From: Cordylochernes scorpioides
Taxonomy: Eukaryota > Arthropoda > Arachnida > Pseudoscorpiones > Chernetidae
Direction of reading: 5' to 3'
DNA: 64,000 nucleotides
NCBI GenBank assembly: GCA_030710605.1
Contig: CP092875.1
Span: forward strand, 65,402,623 to 65,466,622
Numbering within the stretch: the first letter of the stretch is position 1; every line of letters starts with the position of its first letter. Below the pieces are notes generated by a model. It had not been told where the DNA came from, made no database searches, and saw only the letters and a program-made list of their open reading frames with translations. Shown here piece after piece: positions 1,034 through 51,490 of the stretch. The translations under genes and the position numbers were made by a program.

Positions 1034-1390
1034 TGAAAATACAATAGAAAAAATAAAAGATAAGTGGGTCAGGTGTTGATATTAAAAATAAAGAAGGCAT
1101 CTCCTGACCACGAGCACATGTGCTTTTTAGATGGCAGAGCGCCATCTAGTGGAGCAAAAATGAACTAAATGTTTATTTAGCTTGCTTCGTGATATTTGGC
1201 CTACCCAATTTCTTAATAAATCAAGAAAAGCCATCCACGAACGCGTTTCGCGCTGTTGGCGCTCGTCAGCGTGGAGAAGGTTGTAACCACTGCGACCAAA
1301 ACGATTTTCGATCCCAATGGCTTCCCGAAAAATCAAGAAATGGGTATTTAAGGCCAAATTTGCGTAAAGACGCGCTTAACACATGAATTA
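1034..1390 (-). mobile_element. Hammerhead-bearing element, family 2 (inserted in copy A)
   Basis: This insertion is absent from the matching place in segment B (around 46640), where ATAACTATG runs directly into TAAATTTACTTATAT. It contains GGCAGAGCGCCATCT near 1135, a segment with TTGGCC and AATCAAGAAA, and a hammerhead motif at 1234-1275. Relatives lie at 32400-32610 and 42590-42890. It carries no protein. By analogy with retrozymes and Penelope-like elements it would be mobilised in trans; that is inference. Confidence 0.55.
1234..1275 (-). ncRNA. Hammerhead ribozyme motif (CGC/GCG stem II)
   Basis: Read on the minus strand: stem I TCCACG, core CTGACGAG, stem II CGC with loop CAACA and closing GCG, then CGAAAC, a very short stem III, cleavage triplet GTT, and stem I partner CGTGGA. 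All conserved hammerhead core positions (CUGANGA, GAAA, NUH) are present. Stem II is CGC/GCG where the copy at 30547 has GGC/GCC, so both sides changed together. The tiny stem III is self-complementary (ACGCGT), as in minimal type I hammerheads that act as dimers. Confidence 0.8.
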
Positions 1391-7900: not shown

Positions 7901-8055
7901 TTACCTTTATCACAGGAATAGCGACATTTTAAAAGATAATAATGAAAACTATTCTATATATATTGACATCTATATAATTTTCAAAGCCAGGGTTAAAAGT
8001 TCATTACCTTTTTCTAAAACCTTTCAAAGCCTATTTCTAGACCATTATATACATA

Positions 8056-11000: not shown

Positions 11001-11389
11001 CTATAGACAGGGTGGTCTGTATAGACAGGTGGATGTATCACACAGCTGATAACAGGGTTGTCTAGGGTGGTCGCTATAGACAGGGTGGTCTGTATAGGCA
11101 GGTGGATGTATCACACAGCTGATAACAGGGTTGTCTAGGGTGAACGCTATAGACAGGGTGGTCTGTATAGACAGGTGGATGTATCACACAGCTGATAACA
11201 GGGTTGTCTAGGGTGGTCGTTATAGACAGGGTGTTCTGTATAGACAGGTGGATGTAACACACAGCTGATAACAGGGTTGTCTAGAGGGGGGCGGGCAGGG
11301 AGGTCACGTGTTTGCTGGCGGCCAATGGGCGCGCATTCTATCCGTGAGCTTCAGACAGACAGACAGAATAAGGCAAATATATAAGTAGA
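8056..11389 (-). mobile_element. Helitron (non-autonomous) with a huge internal satellite; absent from copy B
   Basis: On the minus strand it starts TCTACTTATATATTTGCC with a run of GTCTGTCTGTCTG, a usual Helitron 5' look. It ends with a GC hairpin (CCCGGGCGTTGCCCGGG), then CCTTTCGTCTAG, giving the CTAG terminus, next to host T. The flanks are A and T, the expected Helitron target. Segment B has the uninterrupted site at 54708/54709 (ATATATGTA|TATCATTTC), so both ends are fixed to the base. Almost all of the 3.33 kb is the 73-bp satellite at 8120-11285. No Rep/helicase frame is present. Confidence 0.88.
8120..11285. repeat. 73-bp satellite, ~43 units, inside the Helitron
   Basis: The unit begins GCTATAGACAGGGTGGTCTG, then TATAGACAGGTGGATGTATC, ACACAGCTGATAACAGGG and TTGCCTAGGGTGGTC. 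Common variants: ACTGATGATAACAGG, GCCGAAAGTGACC, and a 72-bp form with GCTATGACAGG. Blocks of two to four units repeat as larger groups (for example 9960-10300 against 10300-10630), which shows recent local amplification. The inverse reading CCTGTCTATAGC matches the terminal repeats of the pogo-like MITEs at 36543 and 45158. The HPPVYTDH-type frames are repeat artefacts. Confidence 0.93.
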
Positions 11390-11679
11390 TATCATTTATA
11401 AATGACGCATATTACAAAAGCAAAAAACTCATTTTCATAAATAAATAATTTAAAATATAGTACAATATAATATAATGCGGCTTGTGATTGTAAAACGACA
11501 TTTGAAATACTATCCTGCGTGTGTTTCTTTTCAACGAAAAATCAAAATTAATTTTAAGGAGAAATAACGATTATTTCTAAACTATGAGATGAGGTATGAA
11601 AAGGTGAATTGTGAAGAGTAAATGATAAACGGAAAAATAAAAGTGTCCAGAAATGGGAATATTAAAATATACTCTCAGA

Positions 11680-11948
11680 TATATCTAAATTCGGTACACT
11701 GAGGTAATATATAATAGCGCATTCTATGATATTAAAGATTAAATATAAGGCTATGTAACGCGCTTTCTATATATAAGAAATGAAAGTATTAAATCATGAA
11801 TGTTTCTTTTATACATAAAACAAACTTCTACTGTCCTTACTCCGATGACAATGAACCAAGCCCTTCCAATATTTTTCATCGCAGTAAGGACAGCTTTTTT
11901 TATGGTTAAAAGAAACATTCCTGTTTCAATGCTTCCATTTCTTATATA
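11680..11948. mobile_element. Foldback-MITE family fragment (copy A)
   Basis: AAACTTCTACTGTCCTTACT and its inverse GTCCTTACTGCGATG-like parts flank GCCCTTCCAATATTTTTCAT, showing the family hairpin. A mariner relic (11949-12375) sits in its right arm. Same arrangement at 54880-55067 in B, where the arms pair better. Confidence 0.6.
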
Positions 11949-12375
11949 CGAGGGGTGTCCCATAAGTCCGTGGCCCGACCATGAGAACGAAATATTAGAA
12001 ACTAATAAATTTTACCATATATACCTTAAAGCCTTGTATAAAGATATGTAAATTCTCAAGATTCTACAACTAACCGTTTTTTTTTTGTTACCACATGCAC
12101 CCTTTTCACCAGATCTAGCTCCGTCTGACTTCCACATATTTCCTCATTTGAAAAAATCACTTTCTGGCATTCATTTTAGGTCAGATGAAGAGGTCTGTAA
12201 CATCATTTTTTGAGTCACTTGAAACATCGTTCTTTTTGGAGGGCATAAAAGCATTAGAACATCGCTGGAAAAAATGTATAGACCTTAAAGGGGATTATGT
12301 TGAAAAATAAATCATAATCATTTTATTAATCATTTTCTTTATATGTCGGGCCACCGACTTATGGGACACCCCTCG
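11949..12375 (+). pseudogene. Internally deleted mariner transposon (copy A)
   Basis: Terminal inverted repeats CGAGGGGTGTCCCATAAGTC / GACTTATGGGACACCCCTCG are flanked by TA. Between about 12090 and 12310 the plus strand, with frameshifts, encodes the C-terminal end of a mariner transposase: HAPFSPDLAPSDFH-like, then FPHLKKSL, RSDEEV and ALEHRWKKCIDLKGDYVEK before a stop. The last Asp of the DD34D triad is within APSD. The N-terminal two thirds are deleted. The element is also in B (55068-55492), so it predates the duplication. Confidence 0.85.
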
Positions 12376-12524
12376 TATATATATGGCACGTTATAGCCTC
12401 ATAATTAAGTATTTTTATACCAAAAGAATCACCTCTTTCTTTATTTGTACAACAGAACGATGCATTGTACATCACCACAGTAAAATACTGTGTAAAGGAA
12501 ACATTCCTGCTTCAATGCTTCTAT

Positions 12525-12840
12525 TTCAACAACAAACAACAACAAAAAGGCTTTTATTAGAGCCCATTGCCCTGTAAGGATTCGCCAAACAACAACAAAA
12601 TAATACAGTAATTTTTCCTATCTTTCTCCATATGCACGTGAACCTTTGTTTGAAAAAGGGATTTATTTACACATCTGTTCTAAAACTTTCCTCACTACTT
12701 CTTTTGTGTATGAATCTATTTACAATTGATCTGTAGAAATTATAGAGTTCTATTGCTATATTTTTCTTTTCTTTAATAGTTCTCAGCGTCTGCAGCGGGT
12801 TGATAAATCTCCAGAAGGTGATTTTGAGAGTTTTTTCTCT
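12525..12840 (-). mobile_element. LINE 3' tail with (GTT)n end (copy A)
   Basis: On the minus strand: an end of coding sequence like IAIELYNFYRSI then NRFIHKRGSEESFRTD with a stop, then a conserved 3' UTR (CCCATGGGGAAAGGG-type, TGTATGGCGAATCC, GGGCCCTAATAAAAGCC) and a GTT-rich tail at 12527-12550. Copies at 55645-55950, 59430-59665 and 41957-42267. Truncated; clade not assigned. Confidence 0.6.
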
Positions 12841-12859
12841 TTTTATTTCTTACATATTA

Positions 12860-14190
12860 AAAGATTAAAAATGTTGTAAAGACGCTAGCTACCTGTTTGG
12901 AACTTGGCGCATCGGCAAGGAATTGCAGCCAACACTTAATAAGGTATGATTTTTGATTTAAAACAAAATATGTGATATTTGAGTAAATACGTAAAAATAA
13001 TACATATATGTTATTATATATTGAAAATAAATTATGTTCAATAAAAATATATACAATATTTATTATATATTTCATATATTTTAAACACACACCCACAAAT
13101 ATATTATCAAAATATGTAAAATAATTTTAAATCTAAAGAGAGAGATTGTTTTCGAATCATACACCTGTTTATATGAAAAATTATATAAAATATGATAAAT
13201 TATTATATTTATATATCAATTTCATATATAATTAAAATATAAATTGAAAATTTATCACATTAAATATACTTTTTAAATTTTAGTTTTACTTATTTTAAAG
13301 CGTTTAATAAAAAAAAATCATATTACAAATTATATATTTAGCACTATTCATCAAAGTATATTTCTAACGTATTAATTATATTTTGAAATTAATATTTTTT
13401 AAATGGGAATAAAGTATGGCTACTTTCTCTAAAGAGAAGAAACATTTCATGCATTAATAAATTCCATTTTCTCTTTAAATGTAGCCCTAATCAAATAAAA
13501 AAAAATGACGAAAGAATAAAATGTATTCTAATTGGAAAGAAATATAAAAAGAACTAACAAATAAAGAATTCATTGAAGCAGAGCTCCTTTTAAAAAAGGA
13601 ATAGAAAGCAAAAAAGAAAGATTCGATTGCTTAGAGTCTAGGGTTACTTCATTAAAAAAATCTTTTTATTTACAATAAATTTGGCTGCAAGTTTACTAAG
13701 CATAAAAAGACGATTTTTTAAGCAGAAGATGAATGGGATGCAGAAGATAGACGAGCAGGGGGGCCAAATGCTGTATGCTTCCATTTCCGGACTGTTTCCG
13801 ACATCAGTGAGCAAAAAAAAGTTCATTTGCTAGATATGGATTATAAATTAGTGAGCAACAGTGGTGCTAAATTATTTTTTAAGCGTCTCTGAAATGTCTT
13901 TTTTCCTTCTTTGGTTTTTACCTTTTAGAAAATTTATTCTGCCCCATTTTTTTCCCTTGCAAATTATTTTAACCCTTGTATATATGGCGCGTATTTTTCT
14001 TTGAATAAACACATATATTTTTCCAATTTTTATATTTGAAAAATAAAAATTATTTACCCACACACACACATATATATATATATATAGAGTTTTAACAAAT
14101 ATAAATGTATTTTCAAAAATATAAATGGTACCTGTAAAACTCGATTATATATTTATTCTTCTTTTTTTTTTCAAAATGAAAAGGCATATA
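12860..14190. other. Nearly identical duplicated block, mostly AT-rich
   Basis: Compared with 55970-57290, the stretch 13100-14170 shows only scattered single differences over a kilobase, less than most of the duplication. A frame on the plus strand within it, 13725-13830 (KQKMNGMQKIDEQGGQ then MLYASISGLFPTSVSKKKF), follows TTTTTTAAGCAG, an acceptor-like site, and ends in TAG. In B one Leu is Gln. A minus-strand frame also stays open. Neither is convincing. Confidence 0.4.
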
Positions 14191-14310
14191 CTGGATCAAA
14201 ATGTCATTTATTTTACCAATATTTCAGTTGGCTGAACGCCAACCTTTATCAAGGTGTTATCACATATTTAATATATGCCTTTTTAAATATTTTGATCGAA
14301 TATACGAGTA
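14176..14310. mobile_element. Single arm of the GGCATATA palindromic element
   Basis: AAAAGGCATATACTGGATCA, ACCAATATTTCAGTTGGCTG, AACGCCAACCTTTATCAAGG and a closing ATATGCCTTTTT. Same sequence as each arm of 34071-34300. Confidence 0.75.
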
Positions 14311-20120: not shown

Positions 20121-20189
20121 TGATGTGTAACATTTTACATTCGCTATAATATATATAATACAACTATAGTTAAGAATTATATTAGTTAA

Positions 20190-20540
20190 GAAAAAAGAAA
20201 AAGGCATCTCCTGATCGTAAAACTAGAAGTTGCTGATTGCTTGCGCCATCTGTCGGAATAAATAAAACTATTCTTGGGTGCTGCGCTGTATAGGAGCTCC
20301 ATCTATTATTTCTTCCAGTGGTGAATCTGTATAAAACCGGTGGTCTTAATAAAGCTTTGTGTGTGTGTGTATATAAACTATTCTTTGATTTTTTAATTAT
20401 TCCAGAATTGGCCAAATACCCATTCTTGATTAATCAAGAAAAGCTAACCACGTATGCGTTTCGGGCTGTTGGCCCTCGTCAACGTGGTACAAGGTGCAAC
20501 TTTTAGTTGCACGACAAGGAGAGAGATGCCTTTTTCTTTT
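20190..20540 (-). mobile_element. Hammerhead-bearing element, family 1 (copy A)
   Basis: Bounded by AAAAAGGCATCTCCTGATCG and its inverse ending GAGATGCCTTTTTC. Terminal repeats include the CTAGAAGTTGCTGATTGCTTG / TTTTAGTTGCACGA relation. A hammerhead motif lies at 20447-20488. A stretch at 20270-20375 (TATAGGAGCTCCATCTATTA, CGGTGGTCTTAATAAAGC) recurs inverted at 46660-46770 and appears to be a nested insertion. Confidence 0.6.
20447..20488 (-). ncRNA. Hammerhead motif with C3 changed (copy A)
   Basis: Stem I ACCACG/CGTGGT, core TTGACGAG (the essential first C of CUGANGA is T), stem II GGC-CAACA-GCC, CGAAAC, and ATA at the cleavage position. The C3 change should abolish cleavage. Confidence 0.7.
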
Positions 20541-20883
20541 TTTCTTCTTAATTTATTCACCTGATCCCATTACAATTTCAATTTTGTACTCTTTTTTTAG
20601 TATATCCTTAGTGTGTTTGCTTAAATCTTTAAATCCCTAGAAACAGCCGAAAAATATAGAATATATTATTATATTTAATTAAAAAGGCATATATTGGATC
20701 AAAAAATCATTTATTTTACCAATATTTCAGTTGGCTGAACGCCAACCTTTATCAAGGTATTATAACATATTAATGTGTGTCAACAACAAACTCAGCGCCA
20801 CATAACGTCAATAGAATTAAGTTTTAAAATATTTTTGCTTATATTCAATGAGGAGAAAAAGATTGATATATAAATTTATATTA

Positions 20884-23719: not shown

Positions 23720-25310
23720 TTTTTTATTGAGACTCATATAGATATAAATTTGTTCAATGATATAGAATCTGAAATATATTTATCTTTACCTTTTTAATTC
23801 AATTTGAATAAAAACTTTTTAAAAATTGTGAATAAATAGTACAAATGTGATATTTTACTGAGATATAAGGTAAATAAATTACGAAAAATATATATCCTTA
23901 TCGTGCAACTTCAGTTGCACACTTAAGAGGATGCCTTTAAAAAAAAACTATTTTAAATTAATTAGTTATTACATATATAAAGATAAAAACATGTCACACA
24001 AAATGTTGCCAACAAAGTTTTCAAATAAACACAAGAAGAACATATATCTTTATCATACATTCATTCTTTTAACAAACAATATGACTAAAAATAAATCATA
24101 TATGCATATATATTAAAGTATAAAAAGTTGTAAATGAGAACAGGAGATGGATTATCTAAGAAAAGTGAAAATTACCTAGCAGACGGTTGAAATATAACAA
24201 GATGGCGGGGAAGAGGATAGAAGCAGAAGATGGAGGGCTTTGTCTCAGCCTATCTGGCGGCTTCCTAAAAACTGCGAATCGATCGGAACTCTGACATTAT
24301 CCGCAGTTATTAGGCTTGCAGCTAATTAGCAAGACAATGAAGGTCTCAAAAAAAGGAACCTTTACCTCCGCCATCTTTCTGAAAACATCGTTAGCTATGG
24401 CTCTTGTTTTTGTAGAGGGCCATTTGTACAGAAGACTTATTGTATGGTCGCTTTTATTGCTGAATCTTTTCAAGATCTTCCTCTAAATCTTTACCCGTCT
24501 TTATTCCTGTTTCTTTGATGCCAAGGTGGCTTTAGGCAATCTATCTCTACTTTTCTTTCACCAATCTGTATTACAAGCCGCGGAAAAATTTTGAAACAGA
24601 ATTTTTAGTTATTTAAGAGAAACATTGAAATTATAAAATACTTTATAATTAAAGTGGGAAAAGAAACTTTGTAACTTAGTTGACGATAAATATAAGCTTG
24701 CTATACAAGTTAATACATTCTGGCTAAGTTAACCATAACATCACACACCAACATATATTTAAATATTGTGCAATAAATTGATAAAGAGCGAGAAATCTTT
24801 CGAAAGATTTTGATAAAAAATGGCTTATTTTTCTTTACAGATCCAGATACGCCCTTTTTTATAAAAACACATATTTAAATGTGAAAAATAATTTAAATTT
24901 AAATAAAAGATTAAATCTTCACTCATTAGATTTAGCCCCATTTACATATGTATTTAGTTGGAATATGTAAATAGAAATTTTATCATTATCCTTTTGACAA
25001 GGAAGAAGATAAAATAAACATAAATTATTGATACAATTTAAAACAAGAGAATCCAACTTTTTTAAAGAATTCGTTTCCCTTATTTATTTAAAATAAATAA
25101 AATTTCATTTTAAATAACTACAGAAATATGGGGATTGTTAGTTTAGTATCCCAGTGTTTTAAAAATTCTTATAGATAGTTAGCTTATTGGCAATTTGAGA
25201 AAGCAACCATATTAACAGATAGAAGCGATATATATGTCTTGTGGAGGTTTGAACATTCAGTTATCAGTCTCATTCCTAATGACAAAAAAAGTAAAATACA
25301 TATTCACAGA
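23720..25310. other. AT-rich region with one GC-rich patch
   Basis: Mostly featureless. The patch 24180-24440 carries ACAAGATGGCGGGGAAGAGG on the plus strand and, inverted 200 bp on, AGAAAGATGGCGGAGGTAAA on the minus strand. Both have ATG in good context, but the frames are short (plus: 30 codons) and no gene can be supported. Confidence 0.35.
24490..24715 (+). repeat. Dispersed ~230-bp repeat, copy 2
   Basis: Same blocks as 22634-22870, direct orientation, about 90% identical by eye. The first copy has an extra CGCG inside GGTGGCGCGCTTTAGG. Confidence 0.7.
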
Positions 25311-28979: not shown

Positions 28980-29160
28980 ATATATATATATATATATATT
29001 AATAGTAATTTTTTTATATTTGGAAAATAGAGAAAAAGTAAACTATTAACAAACCTCACACATTTAAATTAAATAAAAAAATTTATTAATCTTAAAATTT
29101 TTCATAACTATACTATATATATATATATGATAAATAATACAAAAGTGGCATTGTACTTGG
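28980..29160. other. AT-rich spacer with TA microsatellites
   Basis: (TA)n runs at 28978-29000 and 29117-29129. Nothing else. Confidence 0.5.
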
Positions 29161-29174
29161 ATCAAGTGGATAAA

Positions 29175-29420
29175 TTAAGAAAAAGACATCTCCTGATCGT
29201 TCAACTTAGAGTTGCTGATGGCTTCCGCCATCTGTCGGAATAAATATTAACTAATAGTTGATTTTTAACTATTCTAAATAGGTCAAATAACCTTTCTTGA
29301 ATTCTAGAATAATTAAAATATCAATGATCGGTTGATATTTATTCCGTATTTATTTATTTATGATGAAAGTCATCAGCAACTTTAAGTTGCATGTTCAGGA
29401 GATGTCTTATAATAGATTTA
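29175..29420. mobile_element. Family 1 element without a hammerhead core
   Basis: AAAGACATCTCCTGATCGTT and CTTAGAGTTGCTGATGGCTT on the left; AGTTGCATGTTCAGGAGATG on the right. Terminal repeats match 30401-30752, but the central ribozyme segment is missing. Confidence 0.6.
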
Positions 29421-30400
29421 CTAGAATATTTAAAAAACATTTTACATACATATATATATTTGGCCTTATATAAAGAAGCTCTTCTCCCTGACTTGTATTT
29501 CCTTCGTCTCTTCTTACATATTAGAAATGTGGATGATATATAATGGCCAGAAAGAGGAGTTAAGAAAAGAGCCTGAAAACCCACAAATATTTCGAAGTTG
29601 AAGATAAAAATATATTGGAGTATAAGCAAAGTGGCAATAACAACGCCGTTAAAGAGCCAAAAGAATGCTATGGTTGAAGAATATTTGTATCTTAGATATG
29701 GGGAGGATAAATTTAGCTGTAATTTCATCCTCCAGAAAAATAGATCATGATAAACATACTGTAGTTTTGACGGCGTTTGAGAGATAACGTTGAAATACTA
29801 AAATAGGTTTTATACCTGTTAACATATTGGATAAAATAACATCGTAATACACATCTATTTCAATATATAGATACAAAGTTTAACCTATTTTAGTAAGTAT
29901 ATATGTGGCAATATAATAATAATGTGGGGAAAGAGAAATAATCACACCACAATTTGGTAGAGAAATCCTAGACAACCAGAGAGAGATGGAGAGAGCTGGG
30001 CCCGGCCGCCGCTGAGCGGCCGACCGTTCGTTTCGAACACAAAAAATCACCAACTGTCTTAATTAGTCCTGAGGTTCCAAGTAACGCCCCTGTGGTCGCC
30101 CCCTGGAATGTCGCTGGTGTCTCAAATGACTGGACTTTAGCTGCTGTCTCTCTCTGGGCTGACTCTAGGTTTACTTTATTATTCCTGGAAGAGTAATATT
30201 ATGACATATATGTATTATTATATTGTATTTTTAATTATTTATTACAGGAGAACGTTCGAATTCTCATGTATGGGAAATCCTCTGATATATAAGCAAATAA
30301 GTAATGGTTTTGGTTCAAATATGAAACTAACTTAAATTTTGTCTATGAGGATAGATACAAAGATCCTTCACTTACAGATTACCAAAAACTTATAAAGAAA
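29420..30400. other. No gene recognised; one GC-rich patch
   Basis: A minus-strand frame at 29354-29728 has hydrophobic stretches but starts inside the preceding repeat and has no homology I can name. 29985-30160 is GC-rich (GGGCCCGGCCGCCGCTGAGC) without a clear role. Confidence 0.35.
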
Positions 30401-30752
30401 TTAAGAAAAAGGCATCTTCTTATCGTGAAACTGAAAGTTGATGATGGCTTGCGTCATATATCGGAATAAATATAAACTATTCTCGTTGATTTTTAATCAT
30501 TCCAGAATTGGCCAAATACCCATTCTTGATTAATCAAGAAAAGCTAACCACGGACGCGTTTCGGGCTGTTGGCCCTCATCAGCGTGGTGCAAGCTGTACC
30601 TCAACGACAAACGAAAAATTGGTCATTCAGGCATTTGGCCAATTCTGGAATAATTAAAATTTAATGATAATAGTTTATATTTATTCCGATAGATGGCGCA
30701 AGCCATCAGCAACTTTCAGTTGCACGATAAGGAGATGCCTTTTTATTAATTT
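30401..30752 (-). mobile_element. Hammerhead-bearing element, family 1, best preserved
   Basis: Long inverted arms of about 115 bp: TTAAGAAAAAGGCATCTTCT, CTGAAAGTTGATGATGGC and CGGAATAAATATAAACTATT on the left have inverse partners on the right, ending GATGCCTTTTTATTAATTTA. The ribozyme (30547-30588) lies between the arms. No protein coded. Similar to non-autonomous Penelope-like or retrozyme elements in carrying a type I hammerhead, but the long inverted arms are unusual. Confidence 0.7.
30547..30588 (-). ncRNA. Hammerhead ribozyme, intact core
   Basis: Minus strand: stem I ACCACG; core CTGATGAG; stem II GGC, loop CAACA, GCC; CGAAAC; two-base loop GC; cleavage triplet GTC; stem I partner CGTGGT. 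Every conserved position of the hammerhead catalytic core is present, with the most active triplet. Stem III is only A-U and C-G and is self-complementary (ACGCGT), so activity is most likely as a dimer, as known for newt satellite and Penelope-type hammerheads. Confidence 0.88.
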
Positions 30753-30860
30753 ATGCACCTTATCTCAGTACAATATCACATTTGTACTACTTTTTAATGC
30801 TTAGACATTTATCATATCTTCGGAAATGTTCTGATTCGGCAATATGCAATTATGGTTTTA

Positions 30861-31476
30861 AATTAACACAAAGCAATAACGCGCCACCTATACATATGAA
30901 AGGATTTAAAAGCAAGAATATTTTTTTATACATATTACAAACTTCTACTGCCCTTACTGCGATGAAAAATATATTGGGAGGGCTTGGCTCATCAGTGGTG
31001 AACCCTCCCAGCGGTTTCGCCAATTTAATCCACCAGACTGCTTCTCAGAGCTCTAATACTGTATTGGACGATTCTGTTTATATACGCAGCACTGAAGGAT
31101 ATAATCTCAGAAATGGTTTTCAATAAAACTATGGACATAAGCTTATAGGACAGTAAGTTGTTGTTTGCGGAAGAGCATTGCTCGATGCAAATATTAGAAT
31201 GTAATTCTACTGTCCTATAAGCTTATGTCCATAGTTTTCTTGAAAACCATTTCGGAGATTATATCCTTCAGTGCTGCGTATATAAGCAGAATCGTCCAAT
31301 ACAGTATTAGAGCTCTGAGAAGCGGTCTGGTGGATTAAATTGGCGAAACCGCTGGGAGGGTTCACCACTGATGAGCCAAGCCCTCCCAATTTATTTTTCA
31401 TCGCAGTAAGGGCAGTAGAAGTTTGTAATATGTATAAAAGAAACATTCGTGCTTTTAAAGCCTTTCAATTTATAAC
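30861..31476. mobile_element. Full-length foldback MITE with 10-bp target duplication
   Basis: TATGGTTTTA flanks both ends (30851-30860, 31477-31486). The two arms, about 290 bp each, are inverted copies: GGGAGGGCTTGGCTCATCAG, CGGTTTCGCCAATTTAATCC, TCCAATACAGTATTAGAGCT and AGCTTATGTCCATAG appear in both. A short loop around 31150-31190 separates them. No transposase. The long inverted repeats and 9-11 bp target duplication suggest mobilisation by a Mutator-like transposase (inference). Fragments lie at 4850, 5560, 11680, 14958, 23520, 51170, 52120 and 54880. Confidence 0.85.
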
Positions 31477-32099: not shown

Positions 32100-32400
32100 T
32101 AGAAACACGTCAATACACAGAGATGAGGGAATGAGAAAGGAAACCACAGAGAGAAAAAGAAGCACGGCGACGAAAGGCCCCTGACATGGTGGTCACAACG
32201 GCTCCATTAGTGCCAGACCACTTCAGCCATGATTCAGACGACAAGTGGCAGACGACCATCACATCGATCTGGGGTCGGATGATCTGATAGGGACCTTGTA
32301 GTCCTGGACTCCTAGCTCTCCTAACCCTTCACTCAGAGCCATAGCGGCACGTTGAAGAATTCTATACTAAATATGAAAAACAATAGAAAAAAATAAAAAT
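32100..32400. other. GC-richer unassigned stretch
   Basis: Balanced composition between 32150 and 32350, with no long frame, no repeat partner in the window and no terminal structure. Confidence 0.4.
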
Positions 32401-32620
32401 AAGTGGGTCAGGTGTTGATATTAAAAATAAAGAAAGCCTATCCTGACCAGGAGCACATGTGCTTTACAGAAGGCAGAGCGCCATCTGGTGGAACAGAAAT
32501 CAACTAAACATTGATTTAGCCTGTTCCCTGATATTTGGCCAACCCGCTCTGCCTTCTGTAAAGCACATATGCTCCTGGTCAGGATATGCCTTCTTTATTT
32601 TTAATACTATATATTAAGCA
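32400..32620. mobile_element. Family 2 hammerhead-element remnant without the ribozyme
   Basis: GAGCACATGTGCTTTACAGA and its inverse TCTGTAAAGCACATATGCTC, with GGCAGAGCGCCATCTGGTGG between. The arms are directly joined, so the centre that holds the hammerhead in 1034-1390 is deleted. Confidence 0.65.
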
Positions 32621-33430: not shown

Positions 33431-34065
33431 TGAGTCGAGGTCGACGCCCACACAAGATGGGAGATGGAGGGGGGAGAGGACAAAAACCCCCACAATAACC
33501 TGCCGCCTGTGGAATTGGGCGCCAATGCAATTTTTGGCCCCGCACCTCTAATTGGAGCTTTCAAATTTTCAAAATGGGAATTACCTAACATGCAAATCTG
33601 ATAACAACCTGTGGAAATTGACATTCTGGGCTGGAGGGATGGTTTCTGCTGGCTGAGGTTGTTGGCTCGGGGTTTTATTAATTGATATATTTTGTGTTAA
33701 GTTTTGGATCTTCAGTTGGCCCCATGGTATTTGGTAGATATTTTAACGTGCTGTTTGAAAGTGATGTTAACCTTGCTACTCAGTAGGTATAGTTATTCTG
33801 TTGTTCTTGGTATTAAGACATTGTTCCGTTGACTTTTCTTGGTTTTGTCATTATCTCCATTCTTGAACCTCGTCCATTGGCTATTCGTCTGTGTTGCATC
33901 TGTTAAGTGACTAATTCTGTATCCAACATCCCCAACGATGTTTCTACTTCTTGCAGAAGTATTATTTGTACTCGTTAACAAAACTTAAGGAACTTGTACA
34001 TTTCATCATGTATATCTGGATTCAGACAATAACTATGAAAGATATTTGATACACAGTAACCTTTT
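33430..34065. other. No feature recognised
   Basis: Unique-looking sequence of moderate GC without a supported gene. Confidence 0.45.
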
Positions 34066-34070
34066 AATTA

Positions 34071-34300
34071 AAAAGGCATATATTGGATCAAAATATAATT
34101 TATTTTACCAATATTTCAGTTGGCTGAACGCCAACCTTTATCAAGGTGTTATAACATTTTAAAGTCTTTAAAATGACTTTAAAGTAAGACTAGTAAAATA
34201 AGACTTTAAAATGTTATAACACCTTGATAAAGGTTGGCGTTCAGCCAACTGAAATATTGGTAAAATAAATGATATTTTGATCCAATATATGCCTTTTTAA
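34071..34300. mobile_element. Complete palindromic element with two ~105-bp arms
   Basis: Left arm AAAAAGGCATATATTGGATC, TTTACCAATATTTCAGTTGG, CTGAACGCCAACCTTTATCA, AGGTGTTATAACATTTTAAA; the right arm is its inverse ending ATATATGCCTTTTT. The spacer is about 30 bp. Each arm read outward contains CCTTGATAAAGG, a GTTGGC/GCCAAC hairpin and TGAAAT, a layout like a degenerate hammerhead. Single arms at 14176, 20034, 20685 and 63165. Confidence 0.8.
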
Positions 34301-34637
34301 TTAAAGATTTATTTTTATGAATTGCTCTATTTTCAAAACAGTAGTCTTTATTGAAGACACGCGAGATAACCAAGTGTGAACTAAATTTCCTCTGTCTCCT
34401 TCAAAAGAACAGATGACTGGCGACATCAAAGTTTTGTCCATGAGTGTACTTAGTGAGTGTTATTATCTTGTTTGTTAATAAGTTTAGCTGGTTAGGTATT
34501 TAGTGAACTAATATTCTTGTTTCGTGATCTTGGGCTTGTAAAGAAATAACCCTTTAGGTGGTTCGAATTTGTTTGGTGAATGTTAAATATGTACTTTCGA
34601 ATTTTTACAACATGTTGAATTTTATCATATTGCCTAA

Positions 34638-39320: not shown

Positions 39321-39644
39321 AATTTAGATTTAGCTTGCTAATCTAACCAAATCTACTTGATATGATTTATCATTCTGATCAGTTTGCTCCTTAAGTTTTA
39401 AATGTAGTATCACTGTTATATTTTTATTATATAGTTTTTACACTATATATATATAATACATACATTAGATTTTCTCTCTGCTCAGAAGGCAAATATTCGA
39501 ATAAATGACCATGCTCAGAACATACAGATATGTATAAATGACCATGCAACAGCACCAGTTTGTCAAATTCGAACAAAAGCCAATCTCTATATATAATGAT
39601 ATTATTGCGTTGAAGAATGATATTTACGAGAAAAAGAGTACTGA

Positions 39645-39935
39645 CTTCTATATTATAGATGGAAATTTTACCTGGAGGATATTGATCTAAAGAGACTAAG
39701 GTCGCCTCTCCGCCCTAGGCTGACGAGGGCCATTAGCCCGAAACCATGGTCTCTAGGTGGACGGTTTTCAATTTGCCAAAGCTGGTGTTGTGGCTTTGTC
39801 ACCGACCCGAGGCTGCTAGTTACGGCGACGGTTAATAGATGGCATCTAGTTTTGATGTCTATTTTGACGGAAGAGGCGACCTTAATCTCTTTAGATCAAT
39901 ATCCTCGCGGCAAAATTTCCATCTATATTATAGCC
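39645..39935. mobile_element. TIR element containing a hammerhead ribozyme
   Basis: Left end TATTATAGATGGAAATTTTA, GGATATTGATCTAAAGAGAC, TAAGGTCGCCTC; the right end is the inverse (GAGGCGACCTTAATCTCTTT ... CCATCTATATTATAG). Ends about 60 bp long. The ribozyme is at 39714. No protein. Confidence 0.75.
39714..39757 (+). ncRNA. Hammerhead ribozyme, first of a direct pair
   Basis: Stem I CCTAGG, core CTGACGAG, stem II GGC-CATTA-GCC, CGAAAC, stem III loop CATG, triplet GTC, stem I partner TCTAGG. Outer bases CCGC / GGACGG extend stem I past an internal loop, the usual place for the stem I-stem II loop contact. ACCATGGT is self-complementary, fitting a dimeric ribozyme. Confidence 0.87.
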
Positions 39936-40032
39936 ATAGATTTGGCCTAGCCACCTTGCCAGCTAAATACCTCTTTGTCAGATTGTCAAGATTCCATTAG
40001 ATCCCGTGTGGATCTCATGGAATAAAGTCCGC

Positions 40033-40076
40033 CCTAGACTGACGAGGGCCATTAGCTCGAAACCGTGGTCTCTAGA
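40033..40076 (+). ncRNA. Hammerhead ribozyme, second of a direct pair
   Basis: CCTAGA, CTGACGAG, stem II GGC-CATTA-GCT (one G-U pair), CGAAAC, loop CGTG, GTC, TCTAGA. The closing pair of stem I is A-U where the first copy has G-U. 319 bp from the first copy in the same orientation, with CTTTTCAATTTGCCAAAGCT shared downstream. Confidence 0.86.
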
Positions 40077-40129
40077 TGGACGCTTTTCAATTTGCCAAAG
40101 CTGGTGTTGTCTCTTTAGATAACTTCTAT

Positions 40130-40770
40130 ATTAAAATAAATCAATGTGCATTTCCTCTCGGGATTATCTCTAGGCATAACACTTTTTGAAAGAGATTTCC
40201 CCAAGTATATGTTGTATAGGTTATGGTAATCATGGTGTTGGGTAGAGGTTTAGGACAGTCTTTACTGTCGATATACCTCTACATATAGAAATCAGTTTTC
40301 ATGACTTTGCAATGGTGGAGCTAAAGTTGACTAAGGGAGATTTTTAATAAAAGAGCTACTGAAGAAAAGGCTTAATCAAGAGTTAAGAATCTGGTAAAGA
40401 CTGATTTGTGTGTGTGTGTGTGTGTAGTGTAATGTGAATTTGAAACACGCTCAATGAGAAAGTAATGATGATTGGAAGGATTCGAAATGTGGATCTGAAT
40501 GGAAATAAAAAGATGGATTGACAGGGTAAGAGATGATGAAGTCTTGAGAAGATTAGGAAAGGAGAGAAAAAGTGGACAGAACTGGATAGGAAATATATAT
40601 TGAGAGAACCTAGTTGATATATATAAATTTGGTTAGAATCTAAAACGGCGTTTTATTATTGCTCATTTTGTACTTCTATAGAGGGGTGGTAATACCCGAA
40701 AACTTGAGAATGCAATAAAAATGACAATATTGGCTGCTTTTAAACTTTTTTTATAGATTTATTTATTTAT
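40130..40770. other. No gene recognised; (GT)n near 40409
   Basis: Includes a short (GT)n at 40408-40424. Frames are short and unconvincing. Confidence 0.45.
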
Positions 40771-40779: not shown

Positions 40780-41411
40780 CAGACGCGATATCCCTACAAG
40801 GGATGCTTGCGTCAATAACAACACTAAATTCAGATACTATATTACATTAAAAAATAATAATAATTACAAGATTTGAAAAGATAAGAAAGAGGACATTAAA
40901 ATCATTCTTGATTTTACATCACAACCAACAAAATAAACAAACCAAAAAATACATATATACAAATAGGTAATAATTAAGGTTTTTTTAACCAAGAGAGAAA
41001 ATCATAGATATATTTACAGAATTTTCTAAATTTAAAATACGAGTCCTTACTATTTACAAACATAAAAAGATCCTTGTATTCGATGTTTTCCCGGTTTCTG
41101 TAGTTCTGGAAGATTGGGCACTCAAGAAGCAGATGACTGGAATCCTGCTTTCTCTTTCCACATAAACATCCCGGATCGTCTATAGCTCCTATTCGAAACA
41201 GAAAATCTCCGAAATTTCCATGACCAGTAACGAATTGCACATTGTAAAAGTCAGGGCGGAAATATTTTGGAATGCCCAAAGGGAAAAAGAGACGAAAGTG
41301 ATCACTTGTATTAGAAAACATATCTTCCATTCTTGTTCTCAAAAATCCTTTTATAATTGAAGGAGAATGTGGACTGAACGTTCGTTGGTCTTCCTCGCTT
41401 AGTTGATCCAA
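40780..41411 (-). pseudogene. Non-LTR retrotransposon ORF2 C-terminus and 3' UTR
   Basis: A 145-codon minus-strand frame (40974-41411) contains FVTGHGNFGDFLFRIG, then a CLCG...H-LLEC zinc-knuckle segment (PGCLCGKRKQDSSHLLLECP) and ends SWLKKP. This is the usual pattern near the C-terminus of ORF2 in I/R1/Jockey-type LINEs, after the reverse transcriptase. Reverse transcriptase, endonuclease and 5' end are missing. The 3' UTR extends to about 40780. Two other fragments of the family lie at 16075 and 37620. Confidence 0.8.
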
Positions 41412-41956
41412 TTCAGATTACTTTTTGCATCTAATTATTTATTCTATAATACAGCTATTTTATATATTAAAACATAATACAACCTACATATATATTGATT
41501 ATAAAATATATAAGTGTAGAAATGATCAATTTTTTTTATATTGTAAATATATTGAAATTGAAAAAACAATTTTATAACTTTCCAAAATTTTCAATAATAA
41601 TAAAAAACCTTTTGTGAGTGCAAACACTAAAATATATTTCGAATATTAGGAGTTGAATTACTTTGTCAATTTCATTTTGGCAGCAGCAGATGAGGAGATG
41701 AATAGCTGACAACCCTGGAGTCAACATTCAGTGAGAGCTGTAATTCAGTAATTTAAATTTTGACCGTGGCCCGGTCAAACACAATAAGGGAGATGACTCA
41801 TACAACGTCCACGTGCCTTTTCCAAACACAGGGGGTCAAGATTTGGCACCCCGGACTTCTCCTCTTTCCCGGCCTGATCGTCTGCCTGTCGTCCTAATTC
41901 TGGTCGGACTTAGGATAATATGCAATACAGTATAATGCGGCTATGATTATAGAACG

Positions 41957-42267: not shown

Positions 42268-42589
42268 TTGTTATAGAACAACGTTTAACAAGTTTTACCC
42301 TGGACACTTTTATTTTTCCGTTCATCATTACACTTCACAATTAATCCTTTCATACTTCATCCCTAAGGATAGGAATAGTCATTATTTCTTCTTAAAAAAT
42401 AATTAAAATTTCGACTATTCGTTCTGAAAAAAAGAAACATTTGCGGTAAAACTTGTTAAACGTCGTTCTATAGGATATGCAAATCAAAGCTATTTTCTTT
42501 CACTGAACATATTGGAAGGCGTTTTGAAGATGAAAATAAATAACAAGATATTTCCATCTTAATAATTAGGATTATACAGGATTATATTA

Positions 42590-42895
42590 AAAATAAAAAA
42601 GGCATATCCTGACCAAGAGCACATGTGATTTACAGAAGGCAGAGAGCCATCTGGTGGAACAGAAATCAACTAAACATTGATTTAGCCTGTTCCCTGATAT
42701 TTGGCCAACCCAATTTCTTGATAAATCAAGAAAAGCCATCCACGAACGCGTTTTGCGTTTTTTGGCGCTCGTCAGCGTGGAGTAGACTGTACCTCTGCAA
42801 CCAAAAAGATCTTTGGTCCCAGAGGCTTCTTGAAAAACCAAGAAATAGGTATTTAAGGCCAAACTTGCGTAAATACGCCTAATACATGAAAAATT
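42590..42895 (-). mobile_element. Hammerhead-bearing element, family 2, decayed
   Basis: GGCATATCCTGACCAAGAGC, GGCAGAGAGCCATCTGGTGG, TTGGCCAACCCAATTTCTTG and a closing GGTATTTAAGGCCAAAC. Same order as 1034-1390. Confidence 0.6.
42739..42781 (-). ncRNA. Decayed hammerhead motif
   Basis: Stem I TCCACG/CGTGGA and CTGACGAG are intact. The second core strand is CAAAAC instead of CGAAAC, and stem II loop is AAAAAA-rich. Should be inactive. Confidence 0.6.
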
Positions 42896-42899
42896 GATA

Positions 42900-43540
42900 G
42901 AAAAAAAACAACAAAAAGGTCAGGTGTTGATATTGAACAGGAATATATATAAAGTTTTATACAGTGGATTACCTTTTTGGTGTTGATGGCTTCCTTCCTA
43001 CCTAACCACTGTAATATTCGCCTTAATATGTATATAAAATTTCATTATATTTGCATATCTTTATCCACTTATAGCTGTAGGAACAGCCTAATCATTAACT
43101 GTTTTCGTAACGACTTTTAAGTACACTTTTTTAAATTCTAAAGATATTAATGAAAATTTCAAACAAGTTTATCAATTTTATTTAGATATCTTTCAATTTC
43201 AAGTTGCATACTCAATAAGTATTGTCAAATTTCCACGAACAAACCTAGGCTATATCATTTTTTTGGTAAATATCTAACGTTTAGCTTTCATCTAACGATG
43301 GTGTATTTCGTTTTTTTTTCATAATTGTGATTTCCCGAAAGTTTGTAAAGATTAATAGAATTATTATATGACGTTATTATTATAATTCTTTTTCGTCCAT
43401 TTTCTTATTACACGCTTACTTATAAGGAACAACCTCCATTTGATCAAGTATTGACAATTCTTGTATGTGTGTAACATCAAAATATGATTTGAAACGAGAT
43501 AACGTGACCATATTTAAGAGAAGATTCGGATCACCATTGA
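42900..43540. other. AT-rich spacer
   Basis: Nothing supported. Confidence 0.45.
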
Positions 43541-46632: not shown

Positions 46633-46654
46633 GTGTATATAACTATGTAAATTT

Positions 46655-46770
46655 ACTTATATACACACACAAAGCTTTATTAAGACCAGCGGTCTTATAC
46701 AGTTTCACCACAGGAAGAAATAATAGATGGAGCTCCTATAATCCAGGCAGCGCAGCACCCAAAATTCACC
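46655..46770. repeat. Short repeat shared (inverted) with 20270-20375
   Basis: CAAAGCTTTATTAAGACC and AGATGGAGCTCCTATA are the inverse of GGTCTTAATAAAGC... and TATAGGAGCTCCATCTATTA near 20300. Confidence 0.6.
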
Positions 46771-48004
46771 TATATGCGGTGGAAGCTGGAGAGCAGTAGC
46801 AAATAAAGAAAACCAAATACAATTCTGCATGGAGGACTGGGATCGAGATAAAATTTCAGTATAAATATCCGTCAATTTTATTTTACTATTGATGCTGTAT
46901 AATTTATTGGACACTATTGCTTTCAACACCAATCTCGGTGTAAGTTGTGGTCATAGTGAGTGTTAGAGAGATAGAGAGGAAGGGTTAGCTTTAGGTCTGT
47001 AGCAGCCCTGTGTGTTGGAATCTTAGTAACCAGGAATCTCTGTTTTTACATTTCTATAATGCTCAGATATTCTAACACCTACGGACCTAGTCTCACACGT
47101 ATGTAGCTCTACACTGCTCGCAGGAGACCGCGCAGGATTTGTTGAATCGGTTAGATGGTGAATTGGTTTTGGTAAATGCGTGTCTAAGACGGTTGGCAAG
47201 GTTAGGTGTGTTGCTAAAGTAGTTGTTGACGCCATACATTTTTATAAATCTTGCTATGCTTACTGCTTGGGGAGAAAGGGAATGATTGTATCTGTAGAGA
47301 CTGTAGAGGTTGGAGGAGGTCCGAGTGTATGTCTGTTGATAAAGGTCAATGGATATACGACAGCGGTAAGATGACTGATTGTTTTTTCTCTCTTTCGATG
47401 GTTTTAAAAATAGGGAGGGAGCAATGGGTATGGATACGTTTAGTTAATGTTTTAACTATTTCGATCTTGTGGGTCAGTGGTCAGTAGGAACTAAAATGGG
47501 TGTAATCAAGTTTAAAGTTTCTTTTATAATGGACTGTAGTATGATAAAAAGATGAATATCTTGTGGCCATCAGGAGTGATATGGTTTGCTCTATTCAGTC
47601 TATTAAGTGATTTTTTAATTCTTCGTATATTAGGGATCTGTCATGCTCTGTAATGGAAATAAAGGCGATTCCTTGAAACTTATCCAAAGGTCTAAAATAT
47701 AGAATAGCGGAAAACCAGATACAGTAGTGTAAAGGTGTCTATCAAATCTCAAAACCATCAAGAAAAATCAGTATAAGAGGAACAGTATCATCCGTATTAA
47801 AGAACCCACTCAACCTACCCACAAGTATTCGTTCTTGACATCACGGCCTTTAAAAAGTGTAAAAACAAGAAGACAATAGTAATCTGTTACTCAGATAAGG
47901 GAACTAAAACAGTGATCACGGAATGTACTGCCTATCAGTCGAATATTCTGGAAATACAGCAAGACAGATCAACCTTCATTAATTTCTCTCTCTTTATAAC
48001 AGAC

Positions 48005-49012
48005 CAGGACATATTACTGTCTTGAACAAGATCTGGATAAAACAGGCCCTGTCTAGAACAAATTCTAGATAAAAGGGGCCTTGTCTTGAACAAGATTTGG
48101 CTAAAACAAGCCCTGTCTTGAACAACATATGGATAAAACAGGCACTGTCTTGAACAAATTATGGATAAAAGGGACCTTGTTTTGAACAATATTTGGCTAA
48201 AACAAGCCCTGTCTTGAACAAGTTATGGATAAAATGGGCCCTATCTTGAACAAGATCTGGATAAAACGGGCCCTGTTTTGAACAAGATCTTGCTAAAATG
48301 GGCCCTGTCTTGAACAAGATCTGGAAAAAACGGGCCCTGTCTTGAACAACTATGTCTGAACGGCCCCTGTCTTGAACGAAGTCTGTCTGAAACGGGCCCC
48401 GTCATTTGAACGAAGTCTGTCTGAACGGCCCCTGTCTTGAACGAAGTCTGTGTGAACGGGCCCTGTTTTGAACGAAGTCTGTCTGAACCGGGCCCTGTCT
48501 TGAACAACTATGTCTGAACGGCCCCTGTTTTGAACGAAGTCTGTCTGAAACGGGCCCCTTCATTTGAACGAGGTCTGTCTGAACGGCACCTGTCTTGAAC
48601 GAAGTCTGTGTGAACGGGCCCTGTTTTGAACAAGATCTGGATAAAACGGGCCCTGTCTTGAACAACTATATCTGAACGGCCCCTGTCTTGAACGAAGTTT
48701 GTCTGAAACGGGCCCCGTCATTTGAACGAGGTCTGTCTGAACGGCACCTGTCTTGAACGAAGTCTGTGTGAACGGGCCCTGTTTTGAACAAGATCTGGAT
48801 AAAACGGGCCCTGTCTTGAACAACTATGTCTGAACGGCCCCTGTCTTGAACGAAGTTTGTCTGAAACGGGCTCCGTCATTTGAATGAGGTCTGTCTGAAC
48901 GGCCCCTGTCTTGAACGAAGTCTGTGTGAACGGGCCCTGTTTTGAACGAAGTCTGTCTAAAACGGGCCCTGTATTGAATAACTATGTCTGAACGGCCCCT
49001 GTCTTGAATACA
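48005..49012. repeat. Minisatellite with 158-bp higher-order unit (copy B)
   Basis: Same 31-32 bp monomer as 2625-3115 but expanded. Between about 48400 and 48830 five monomers form a higher-order unit: the same 87-codon minus-strand frame recurs at 48402 and 48560, exactly 158 bp apart. The left part (48005-48300) consists mostly of the AAGATCTGGATAAAA variant. Confidence 0.9.
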
Positions 49013-49488
49013 CTCTATCTAAAATATAAACATGCTGTAAGAGGTCAAAACTATTTATTCTCCCATTATTACGTTAATATGTGTTCAGTAACCTCGGGAA
49101 ACTGAATGTTTACCGAAGACAGGTCTATCTGCTACAGGTTTTTTACATGAATTGAAATGTCTTACAATTTAGTTAATTGATTTTTTTACTTTGGTCATTT
49201 CACGTATGAATACACCACAACACTATTACATTAACTTTACCTGTAGAACTACTAAATGTACTGAGTAAATAGGTGTAAATATTTTTCAAAATTCGTTTTG
49301 TTTGCTTGGTTTTAATGTATATCTACACTGTGTGTGATGTACTCAATTCAAGTAACCAAATACTATATGCAAAATCTGTAAAATTATTCTAATGGAGACC
49401 TGCTCAAGGACATAGAGAATCTGAAGAAGTTGATAGTTCAAGCTTCGTAGGAACAAATTGGCTCAAAATTGATATTTGGAACTTATAC

Positions 49489-49570
49489 CTGTGTTCGCGG
49501 CGTAATGGTCGGTATGATCGCTTTTTCACAACCATGATCTGAGATTGAATCTGGCATTGGGTTATTTGGG
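49489..49570 (-). CDS. Candidate internal exon, 82 bp (copy B)
   Basis: Exact positional partner of 3589-3670, with the same length, the same TTTTCAG acceptor and the same GTATAAGT donor. Differences from A fall at three places and none introduces a stop in either open frame. Survival of both splice sites in both copies supports an exon. The encoded family is not recognised. Confidence 0.4.
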
Positions 49571-49694
49571 CTGAAAATGGTCCCAATTGTTTTGTTTTCT
49601 TTACAAATCAGAATGCGAAGATGAATAATCAATTATATTTATTTTAAGAGAGGGAACTTCCTGACTTATGGCCTATATATCAACTATATATCTA

Positions 49695-50113
49695 CTAGCC
49701 GAATGACCCGGGCAACGCCCGTTTTTTCCCGATTGAATGTTTTTATTCAAATACTATTTGTTACAATTATAAATTGGCGCCTTAAATAAATGCATATATT
49801 AGTTAATAACTATAGCCTATGTGCTTTATCTGTCTATGTACTGTTGGCTTCCGTAGGCATCTCTTACTGGGAAAAAGAAAGAGAAGATTCCATTTAGTTA
49901 TTAACTAATATATGCATTTATTTAAGGAGCGACCCGCTCCAACACAATAGTTACAAAAACGAAAAAGCGAGTGGGGGGGGGGGCAAAGGTGGCGTGATCG
50001 TAGCCAACCAATAGGAGGGCGCCATTCCAAAGAAAAAGCAAACGGTGACAGAGATGACAAATGATTAGGAGATGAAGAATTAAGAACGGATGACGCTCGT
50101 AACTGTATATAGA
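49695..50113 (-). mobile_element. Short Helitron, only in copy B
   Basis: The plus-strand left edge is CTAGCCGAATGACCCGGG then CAACGCCCG, i.e. a minus-strand 3' end with hairpin and CTAG. The right edge ...GTATATAGA is a minus-strand 5' TCTATATAC. Copy A runs through the site (near 3793, ...TATATCTACAACCTAACTCG). Internally AGTTAATAACTA and an inverted pair around ATATATGCATTTATTTAAGG form a foldback. Confidence 0.75.
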
Positions 50114-50221
50114 ATACAGCCTAACTCGAGCTGTCTCTCTATATCAAAACATAAACAATCATGATGATAACCTTTCTTTTTTTAAATTCTATGAAAAATT
50201 TACAGATTACATCAAACAAAT

Positions 50222-50540
50222 AAAAGTCGGTGGACGAGTGGGTAACACCCTCGATTCCCGACAGTCATGAACCGGGATTGAATCCCGCGTTAAAATTTTG
50301 TTTAATATGTGAATAACCTTCACATATTATTCACTGTTTCAATTATCATGAACTAGGGTGCTCTTGCTGAGCGGTACCTATTAATGTGATTTTGAACCGA
50401 GATTACATCACACCAATAACTCCTTATTTTTGTACAAGAATCATCCCTACCAACGTGTGCAGATAACCAAACTAGGGGCTCTAGTACCTTGTTAGTGCAA
50501 TAGTTGAACTGTTCATTGTTCATTAGATGCAGTATAAGCT
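50222..50540 (+). repeat. tRNA-derived SINE (copy B)
   Basis: Duplicate of 3890-4215, with the same A-box and B-box-like stretches (TGGACGAGTGGGTAAC, GGGATTGAATCCC) and body. It was present before the segmental duplication. Confidence 0.7.
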
Positions 50541-51169: not shown

Positions 51170-51490
51170 GTGCATCATATTTTAAATGTTCTAATAAAAG
51201 ACACAATTTGATATTTGCGGAAGAGCGATTGCTCGAAGCATATTATATATTTGAAAATGTATGTAATTCTGCTGTCCTCAAAGCTTATGTCCATAGTTCT
51301 TCTAAAATACCCATTCCAAGAGTCTAACAACAGTATCACTATAAAAGGAAGTTCCAAAAATGCAATATAACAGCGGTACGGTAGATTAAACTGGCGAAAC
51401 TGCTGAGAGGGTTCACCACTGATGAGCCAGGCCCTCCCATTAATTTTTCCATTGCAGTAAGGGCAGTAGAATTTGTTTAATTTCAAAAAG
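51170..51490 (-). mobile_element. Foldback-MITE family fragment (copy B)
   Basis: Partner of 4850-5170, with CACTGATGAGCCAGGCCCTC and GCAGTAAGGGCAGTAGAA. Confidence 0.65.

What the first reader, a model, noticed from the sequence alone, without database searches (positions are those of the whole stretch)
30547..30588. Intact hammerhead self-cleaving ribozyme in a long-armed inverted-repeat element
The minus strand carries the full core CTGATGAG / CGAAAC, a paired 3-bp stem II, a 6-bp stem I and a GTC triplet. The near-absent, self-complementary stem III predicts a dimeric ribozyme. The host element (30401-30752) has inverted arms of about 115 bp around the ribozyme and no protein, which differs from the classic tandem retrozyme layout.
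Basis: partly seen in the sequence, partly recalled or inferred. Interest (0 to 1): 0.88.

Follow-up and report, generated by a model that had tools for sequence, protein, structure and literature searches.

The report
Hairpin-shaped jumping element with RNA enzyme
A pseudoscorpion genome carries many copies of a small non-coding jumping element built around a self-cutting RNA, and the mirror-image shape of the copies suggests that Penelope-type jumping genes copy this RNA from both strands of broken target DNA at once.

Summary
A complete hammerhead core lies at 30553-30582 (-) inside inverted arms of 123 nt (90% complementary). It is one of seven related cores in the window, in three families (A, B, C). 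Paired changes support the fold, yet no core reaches an Rfam gathering score. The host is Cordylochernes scorpioides or a close relative.

Genome copies suggest how the arms arise. Family B copies are laps of a ~350-nt unit. Of 26 distinct loci, 20 start with an antisense arm (14 of these at unit position 305-311), switch to sense at an inner junction that differs each time (20 of 20), and 17 of 26 end at 347-348. Family A, to which this element belongs, has a ~43-nt tail at one end only in 28 of 30 copies. Target duplications are mostly 8-15 bp.

Head-to-head arms with a one-sided tail are described for Penelope-like retrotransposons. A GIY-YIG Penelope element in this genome also forms head-to-head pairs, and one copy is fused to 2.2 laps of family B. 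Best reading: retrozyme-like ribozyme RNA, circular or multimeric, copied by Penelope machinery priming on both target strands. Cleavage, circles and the enzyme are inferred; LINE controls did not complete.

The parts
30547..30588 (-). Type I hammerhead with 6-bp stem I, 4-bp stem II and minimal palindromic stem III; predicted cut after the C at 30553
30400..30795 (+). Whole family A element; ends approximate at the tail side
30398..30520 (.). Inverted arm without tail
30630..30752 (.). Inverted arm next to the tail
30753..30795 (+). One-sided tail, about 43 nt
   Evidence: tail at one end only in 28 of 30 copies
30390..30399 (+). Left target duplication TTATAAAGAA; the right copy is missing here but present in the 98% identical paralogue L002
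63306..63590 (-). Family A copy with a damaged stem II; possible duplication TAATGATATA
20188..20590 (-). Segmental duplicate of the 63-kb copy, core damaged
29140..29420 (+). Family A foldback without the ribozyme
23838..23955 (+). Short family A palindrome without the ribozyme
1041..1388 (-). Family B monomer with an intact hammerhead; 13-bp duplication at 1028-1040 and 1389-1401
46640..46652 (+). Empty site of the 1041-1388 insertion in a segmental duplicate
42582..42938 (-). Family B monomer, circularly permuted against 1041-1388; core damaged
32363..32606 (-). Family B foldback without the ribozyme
39656..40121 (+). Family C insert: inverted arm plus two hammerheads 319 bp apart; duplication ACTTCTATATTA at 39644-39655 and 40122-40133

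Best explanation
The element is a non-autonomous, retrozyme-like hammerhead retroelement. Its RNA is cut by the hammerhead, probably as a dimer through the ACGCGU palindrome, and serves as a circle or multimer for reverse transcription at a staggered break in AT-rich DNA. Both 3' ends of the break prime on the ribozyme RNA near its tail; the two cDNAs run toward each other, sometimes for more than one lap, and are joined. The result is a head-to-head insert with fixed outer ends, a variable inner junction, a tail at one end and a target duplication. The machinery is most likely that of Penelope-like elements (RT plus GIY-YIG endonuclease) in the same genome. Family A, to which this element belongs, descends from one such inverted insert and now spreads with its arms as part of the unit. 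Shown: the conserved fold, the insertion architecture, target duplications, one empty site, laps of the unit. Inferred: cleavage, circle formation, two-sided priming and the Penelope enzyme.
For: Fold: 4 of 11 pairs changed on both sides, 0 in six slid controls; covariation score reached by 0 of 500 shuffles, although the number of two-sided pairs is reached by 22 of 500. Leave-one-out model 84.1 bits. Circular permutation of two monomers. Empty site with a 13-bp duplication. Family B architecture in 26 distinct loci: leading antisense arm in 20, 14 of these starting at 305-311, sense end at 347-348 in 17, unit junction crossed in 21, inner junctions 20 distinct of 20. Family A: one-sided tail in 28 of 30; flanking repeats at p<0.02 in 16 of 28, about 0.6 expected. 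Penelope link: same architecture described in rotifer Penelope, both-strand extension by a purified Penelope protein, six head-to-head pairs of a GIY-YIG Penelope element here, and one copy of it fused to 2.2 laps of family B.
Against: No RNA or activity data. No sequence similarity was found between A, B or C and the Penelope element beyond a 26-nt match at E 0.028, nor a hammerhead in the Penelope parts read. The ribozyme is not more conserved than the rest of the unit (17 of 1150 against 104 of 5900 changed cells, p 0.62). Fetched loci are the best-scoring copies, not a random sample, and some are duplicates. Foldbacks are common in this window (28 pairs), and LINE and Tc1 controls did not complete, so the pattern is not shown to be special to Penelope. 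Many duplications are AT-rich. A linear multimer template is not excluded. The copy in the window itself has no complete duplication.
Confidence: 0.68

Rival explanations
1. The same ribozyme RNA is mobilised by a LINE, and the inverted arms are ordinary twin priming.
For: LINE fragments are present; target duplications of 8-15 bp and an inverted 5' part also fit LINE twin priming (general knowledge).
Against: No poly(A) end is seen; the right end is TCTATTGTTTTTTCAT plus target in most of the 22 rows shown. The same stretch of the unit is copied in both arms in many loci. The one-sided tail is described for Penelope.
Confidence: 0.12
2. A foldback DNA transposon (MITE) that captured a hammerhead.
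For: Long inverted arms, no protein, many dispersed copies.
Against: Ends are not equivalent (tail at one end in 28 of 30); duplications vary in length; sister families have multi-lap copies and variable inner junctions and circularly permuted monomers.
Confidence: 0.05
3. Ordinary tandem retrozymes whose inverted arms arose after insertion by recombination, or in the assembly.
For: Foldbacks of 40 nt or more are common in the window (28 pairs) and segmental duplication is frequent.
Against: In several B loci and in C the antisense arm begins at the target duplication itself, so it was there at insertion; outer ends cluster while inner junctions differ.
Confidence: 0.05
4. A, B and C are pseudo-LTR pieces of Penelope elements not seen here, not a separate ribozyme family.
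For: Penelope pseudo-LTRs carry minimal hammerheads without helix III (PMC7761336 and PMC6155905, passages); the architecture is the same.
Against: Unit-length inserts with their own duplications and no coding sequence; the one Penelope family read has unrelated ends.
Confidence: 0.1

Closest known systems
Metazoan non-LTR retrozymes (Cervera and de la Pena 2020, PMC7229834; abstract, passages and section 14 seen)
   Same: Small non-coding unit with a type I hammerhead, hundreds of bases long, target duplications longer than 4 bp, tandem laps in families B and C, weak stem III as in the dimeric amphibian ribozymes
   Different: Head-to-head antisense arms, one-sided tail, and in family A a single ribozyme per copy in the loop of a palindrome; the word 'inverted' does not occur in that paper
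Penelope-like elements (PMC3846280, passages and Discussion; PMC11167929, passages)
   Same: Head-to-head inverted copies, one-sided tail, short target duplications, AT-rich targets, minimal hammerheads
   Different: No open frame for RT or endonuclease in the element; no sequence similarity found to the one Penelope element read here
Plant LTR retrozymes (passages of PMC7229834)
   Same: Non-coding hammerhead element thought to spread through circular RNA
   Different: Those have type III ribozymes, LTRs, primer-binding site and 4-bp duplications; here type I and longer duplications
Minimal dimeric hammerheads of Penelope elements (Lunse and others 2017; recalled, seen only in a reference list)
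   Same: Near-absent stem III, dimer expected
   Different: Recalled, not compared here

Membership tests
Hammerhead ribozyme, type I | Conserved core CUGANGA ... GAAA ... NUH with stems I and II | tested here: met
Hammerhead ribozyme, type I | Rfam gathering score | tested here: not met
   0 matches in the window; HH9 26.5 against 52 bits
Hammerhead ribozyme, type I | Stable stem III in the monomer | tested here: not met
   two pairs around a 2-nt gap; hexamer ACGCGU kept in 25 of 30 A and 27 of 30 B copies, which would allow a dimer
Hammerhead ribozyme, type I | Self-cleavage | not testable with these tools
   needs in vitro transcription
Metazoan non-LTR retrozyme | Non-coding unit of about 150-450 bp with a type I hammerhead | tested here: met
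   about 396 bp here, 348 bp (B), 319-bp spacing (C)
Metazoan non-LTR retrozyme | Tandem repeats, dimer or more | tested here: not met
   single ribozyme in this copy; met in sister families B and C
Metazoan non-LTR retrozyme | Linear and circular RNA of unit length | not testable with these tools
   no RNA data held
Penelope-like element | Open frame with RT and GIY-YIG endonuclease | tested here: not met
   the only frame of 120 aa or more that overlaps the element, 30731-31126 (+), has no Pfam match
Penelope-like element | Head-to-head inverted repeat with a tail at one end only and a short target duplication | tested here: met
   28 of 30 family A copies; duplications; described in PMC3846280
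MITE | Equivalent terminal inverted repeats and a fixed-length target duplication | tested here: not met
   unequal ends; varying duplications

The most novel reading that the evidence does not exclude
Animal ribozyme circles are copied into the genome by Penelope machinery that primes on both strands of the target, giving multi-lap head-to-head inserts. One such insert became a palindromic retrozyme that now replicates with its arms, so that its ribozyme loop appears in both orientations relative to the tail. This would identify the enzyme behind non-LTR retrozymes.
Probability: 0.55. Interest if true: 0.82.

Novelty: new variant of a known kind. Interest (0 to 1): 0.7.

Why it matters
A 2020 review says that animal retrozymes show no motif that would reveal whose machinery moves them, and names Penelope-like elements only as likely candidates (PMC7761336, passages). 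The clustered outer ends, one-sided tail, variable inner junctions and the B-Penelope chimera seen here are such a mark and can be looked for in any genome with retrozymes. The multi-lap arms are genomic evidence for a circular or multimeric RNA template, and bear on the open question whether head-to-head Penelope copies come from self-priming or from priming on both target strands.

Tried and rejected
Rfam at gathering scores: nothing in the window. IMG/VR scan with a degenerate core pattern: 0 matches. Pfam on seven window frames: only HTH and Tc1-type transposase domains, in two of the seven. A piggyBac-like TTAA reading of the family A ends was dropped because sequence beyond the TTAA on one side is shared between copies (read). 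The first target-duplication scan of family A used over-extended ends and was redone with tail-defined ends. Genome loci were not oriented; corrected from then on. The ribozyme interval was misplaced; redone, same negative result. A dimer energy script gave duplex energies for the palindromes (-7.5 and -11.2 kcal/mol) but its free dimer fold is not a clear hammerhead. PMC4209133, on hammerheads in Penelope elements, is not held. Literature searches in the held library in which I saw no account of inverted-arm retrozymes (listings and some passages). In one search no listed paper holds both 'Cordylochernes' and 'hammerhead', though papers with both would rank first.

Full report
What was checked. 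The minus strand at 30547-30588 carries the hammerhead described: ACCACG-CUGAUGA-GGGC-CAACA-GCCC-GAAAC-GC-GUC-CGUGGU. A loose core pattern occurs once in the 64 kb and never in 100 shuffles. With mismatches allowed, or with a pairing test, six further cores appear: near 1240-1268, 20446-20482, 42726-42796 and 63467-63491 on the minus strand, and at 39721 and 40040 on the plus strand. The seven cores together show 94.8% standard pairs and four pairs changed on both sides, against none in six slid controls. The covariation score is reached by 0 of 500 shuffles, the count of two-sided pairs by 22 of 500. A covariance model built without this copy scores it 84.1 bits, E 2.5e-23; apart from the six cores used to build it, nothing scores better than E 0.93. 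No Rfam family reaches its gathering score anywhere in the window.

Where it is. A reverse-transcriptase fragment at 40977-41417 (-) is 95-99% identical to Cordylochernes scorpioides proteins (three of three hits), so the window comes from this pseudoscorpion or a close relative. The genome held has 2.62 Gb in 24 contigs.

Families in the window. A: this element, segmental duplicates at 20 and 63 kb, and ribozyme-less copies near 29.1-29.4 and 23.8-24.0 kb. B: monomers at 1041-1388 and 42582-42938, and a foldback at 32.4-32.6 kb. C: 39656-40121 with two cores 319 bp apart. Intact cores: this element, 1041-1388 and both cores of C; the cores at 20, 42 and 63 kb are damaged. The window holds 28 inverted pairs of 40 nt or more within 1.5 kb (25 listed), so foldbacks are common here and arms alone prove little.

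Family B tells most about mechanism. The two monomers are circular permutations: 42582-42938 aligns in one piece to the doubled 1034-1389 unit, 83% over 365 columns. The insertion at 1041-1388 has a 13-bp duplication with one mismatch, and a single copy of that sequence at 46640-46652 in a segmental duplicate, with an unrelated insert about 20 bp further on. In the genome 40 of 3448 unscored first-look candidates were scored and 30 loci fetched. Read against the unit and after dropping 4 duplicates, 20 of 26 loci begin with an antisense arm. Fourteen of the 20 start at 305-311; the other six start at 57, 77, 301, 339 and twice at 348. Seventeen of 26 end in sense at 347-348; nine end elsewhere. 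Twenty-one of 26 cross the unit junction, with 27 sense and 7 antisense crossings. The 20 inner junctions all differ. Example L036: antisense 310 to 2 and 348 to 293, then sense 220 to 348, 2 to 348, 2 to 348. In most of the 22 right ends printed the insert ends TCTATTGTTTTTTCAT or nearly so before the target; several left arms begin ATATTAAAAATAAAG where the target already ends in AT repeats. Flanking repeats at p<0.02 occur in 16 of 30 loci, several of them simple AT repeats; exact complex ones are ATAGTCAGATGT (L046), ATTTATCAAAGT (L039) and TATTTAACCTAT (L055).

Family A, the finding itself. Forty of 4828 unscored first-look candidates were scored; the 40 best places match at 85-100%, nearly full length. 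All 30 fetched copies hold the ribozyme region at 91-100% identity, one over 46 of 72 bases only; the core is intact in 27 of 30. They share the inner junction of the query, unlike family B, but they were selected by similarity to it. A tail of about 43 nt is found at the left end only in 19, at the right end only in 9 and at both in 2 of 30. Oriented by the tail, 16 of 28 copies have flanking repeats at p<0.02 and 21 at p<0.05, for example ACATACTCCATCTT (L008 and its duplicate L010), AATGATCTTAC (L020) and ACAAATATGATAA (L021). Some loci share flanks and are not independent. This copy keeps TTATAAAGAA at 30390-30399; the second copy of it is missing here but present in the 98% identical paralogue L002. 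L006 holds two ribozymes head to head.

Family C. Of 10416 unscored first-look candidates 40 were scored; most best matches cover query positions 54-461 of 466. Three of the 40, this copy included, reach back into its inverted arm, as do two secondary matches, so the junction is nearly private.

The Penelope link. In the rotifer Adineta vaga, typical Penelope inserts have an inverted pseudo-LTR next to the rest, an optional 31-bp tail at one of the inverted ends and duplications of 8-10 bp where present; the most frequent arrangement is head to head, and the authors infer self-priming (PMC3846280, passages and Discussion). A purified Penelope protein from a lizard cuts and extends both target strands, starts internally on the RNA and prefers AT-rich DNA (PMC11167929, passages). 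Here L052 and L061 contain a Penelope element: an RT fragment whose best hits are two Cordylochernes proteins with the RVT_1 domain (Pfam itself gives only E 0.014) and a readable GIY-YIG stretch, NVIYKIPCQTCQATYIGETG (recognised from general knowledge, not by a family search). In L052 it is joined on its 5' side to 2.2 laps of antisense family B; a family B insert landing in a Penelope copy would be expected to bring a tail end to that joint, and none is there. Copies of this Penelope element form six head-to-head pairs within 600 nt with differing inner ends, and no tail-to-tail pair within that distance, among 45 matches (my reading). One copy is a partial direct tandem.

How it most likely works. 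Shown: fold, families, insertion marks, laps, clustered outer ends, variable inner ends. Inferred: dimer cleavage, circle formation, two-sided priming by Penelope protein. Self-priming, as proposed for Penelope, could also give head-to-head arms; it predicts a palindromic joint, whereas the two sides of the joint here usually lie at unrelated unit positions, which favours two separate primers. A linear multimer template is not excluded.

What speaks against it. There is no RNA evidence. No sequence kinship was found between the ribozyme families and the one Penelope element read, and no hammerhead in it by model R1. The ribozyme is not more conserved than the rest of the unit (p 0.62). The predicted monomer fold competes with the hammerhead core. 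LINE and Tc1 controls did not complete. Samples are best-scoring copies, not random ones.

Novelty. Small hammerhead retroelements of animals, minimal hammerheads in Penelope elements and head-to-head Penelope inserts are each known. What I did not see in the held library (listings, and passages of the papers cited) is the combination: ribozyme units inserted head to head over several laps with a Penelope-type one-sided tail, and a palindromic family that spreads in that form.

Noticed in passing
window 30921-31442: A much larger palindrome (235-nt arms, 97% complementary, 52 nt apart) of another repeat family lies beside the element; relatives at 5.1-5.7, 15.0-15.5 and 51-55 kb.
   Followed up: partly
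window 1-64000: 28 inverted pairs of 40 nt or more within 1.5 kb; most have no hammerhead core. They may be other Penelope-mobilised families.
   Followed up: no
window 1398-14199 and 46762-57303: Large diverged segmental duplication inside the window (about 80-95% identity), which supplied the empty site.
   Followed up: partly
window 39656-40121: A separate ribozyme family (C) with two intact hammerheads 319 bp apart, 10416 unscored first-look candidates in the genome.
   Followed up: partly
window 1-64000: All seven hammerhead cores fall below Rfam gathering scores, so annotation by Rfam would miss these families.
   Followed up: yes
window 8116-11286: A 73-bp satellite-like array of about 37 copies with a GC content and skew unlike the rest.
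   Followed up: no
window 34063-34305: A repeat also present singly at 14.2, 20.0, 20.7 and 63.2 kb occurs here as a 106-nt palindrome, 99% complementary.
   Followed up: no
L006 1297-1368 (-) and 1659-1730 (+): Two identical ribozymes head to head in one family A locus, about 290 nt apart.
   Followed up: no
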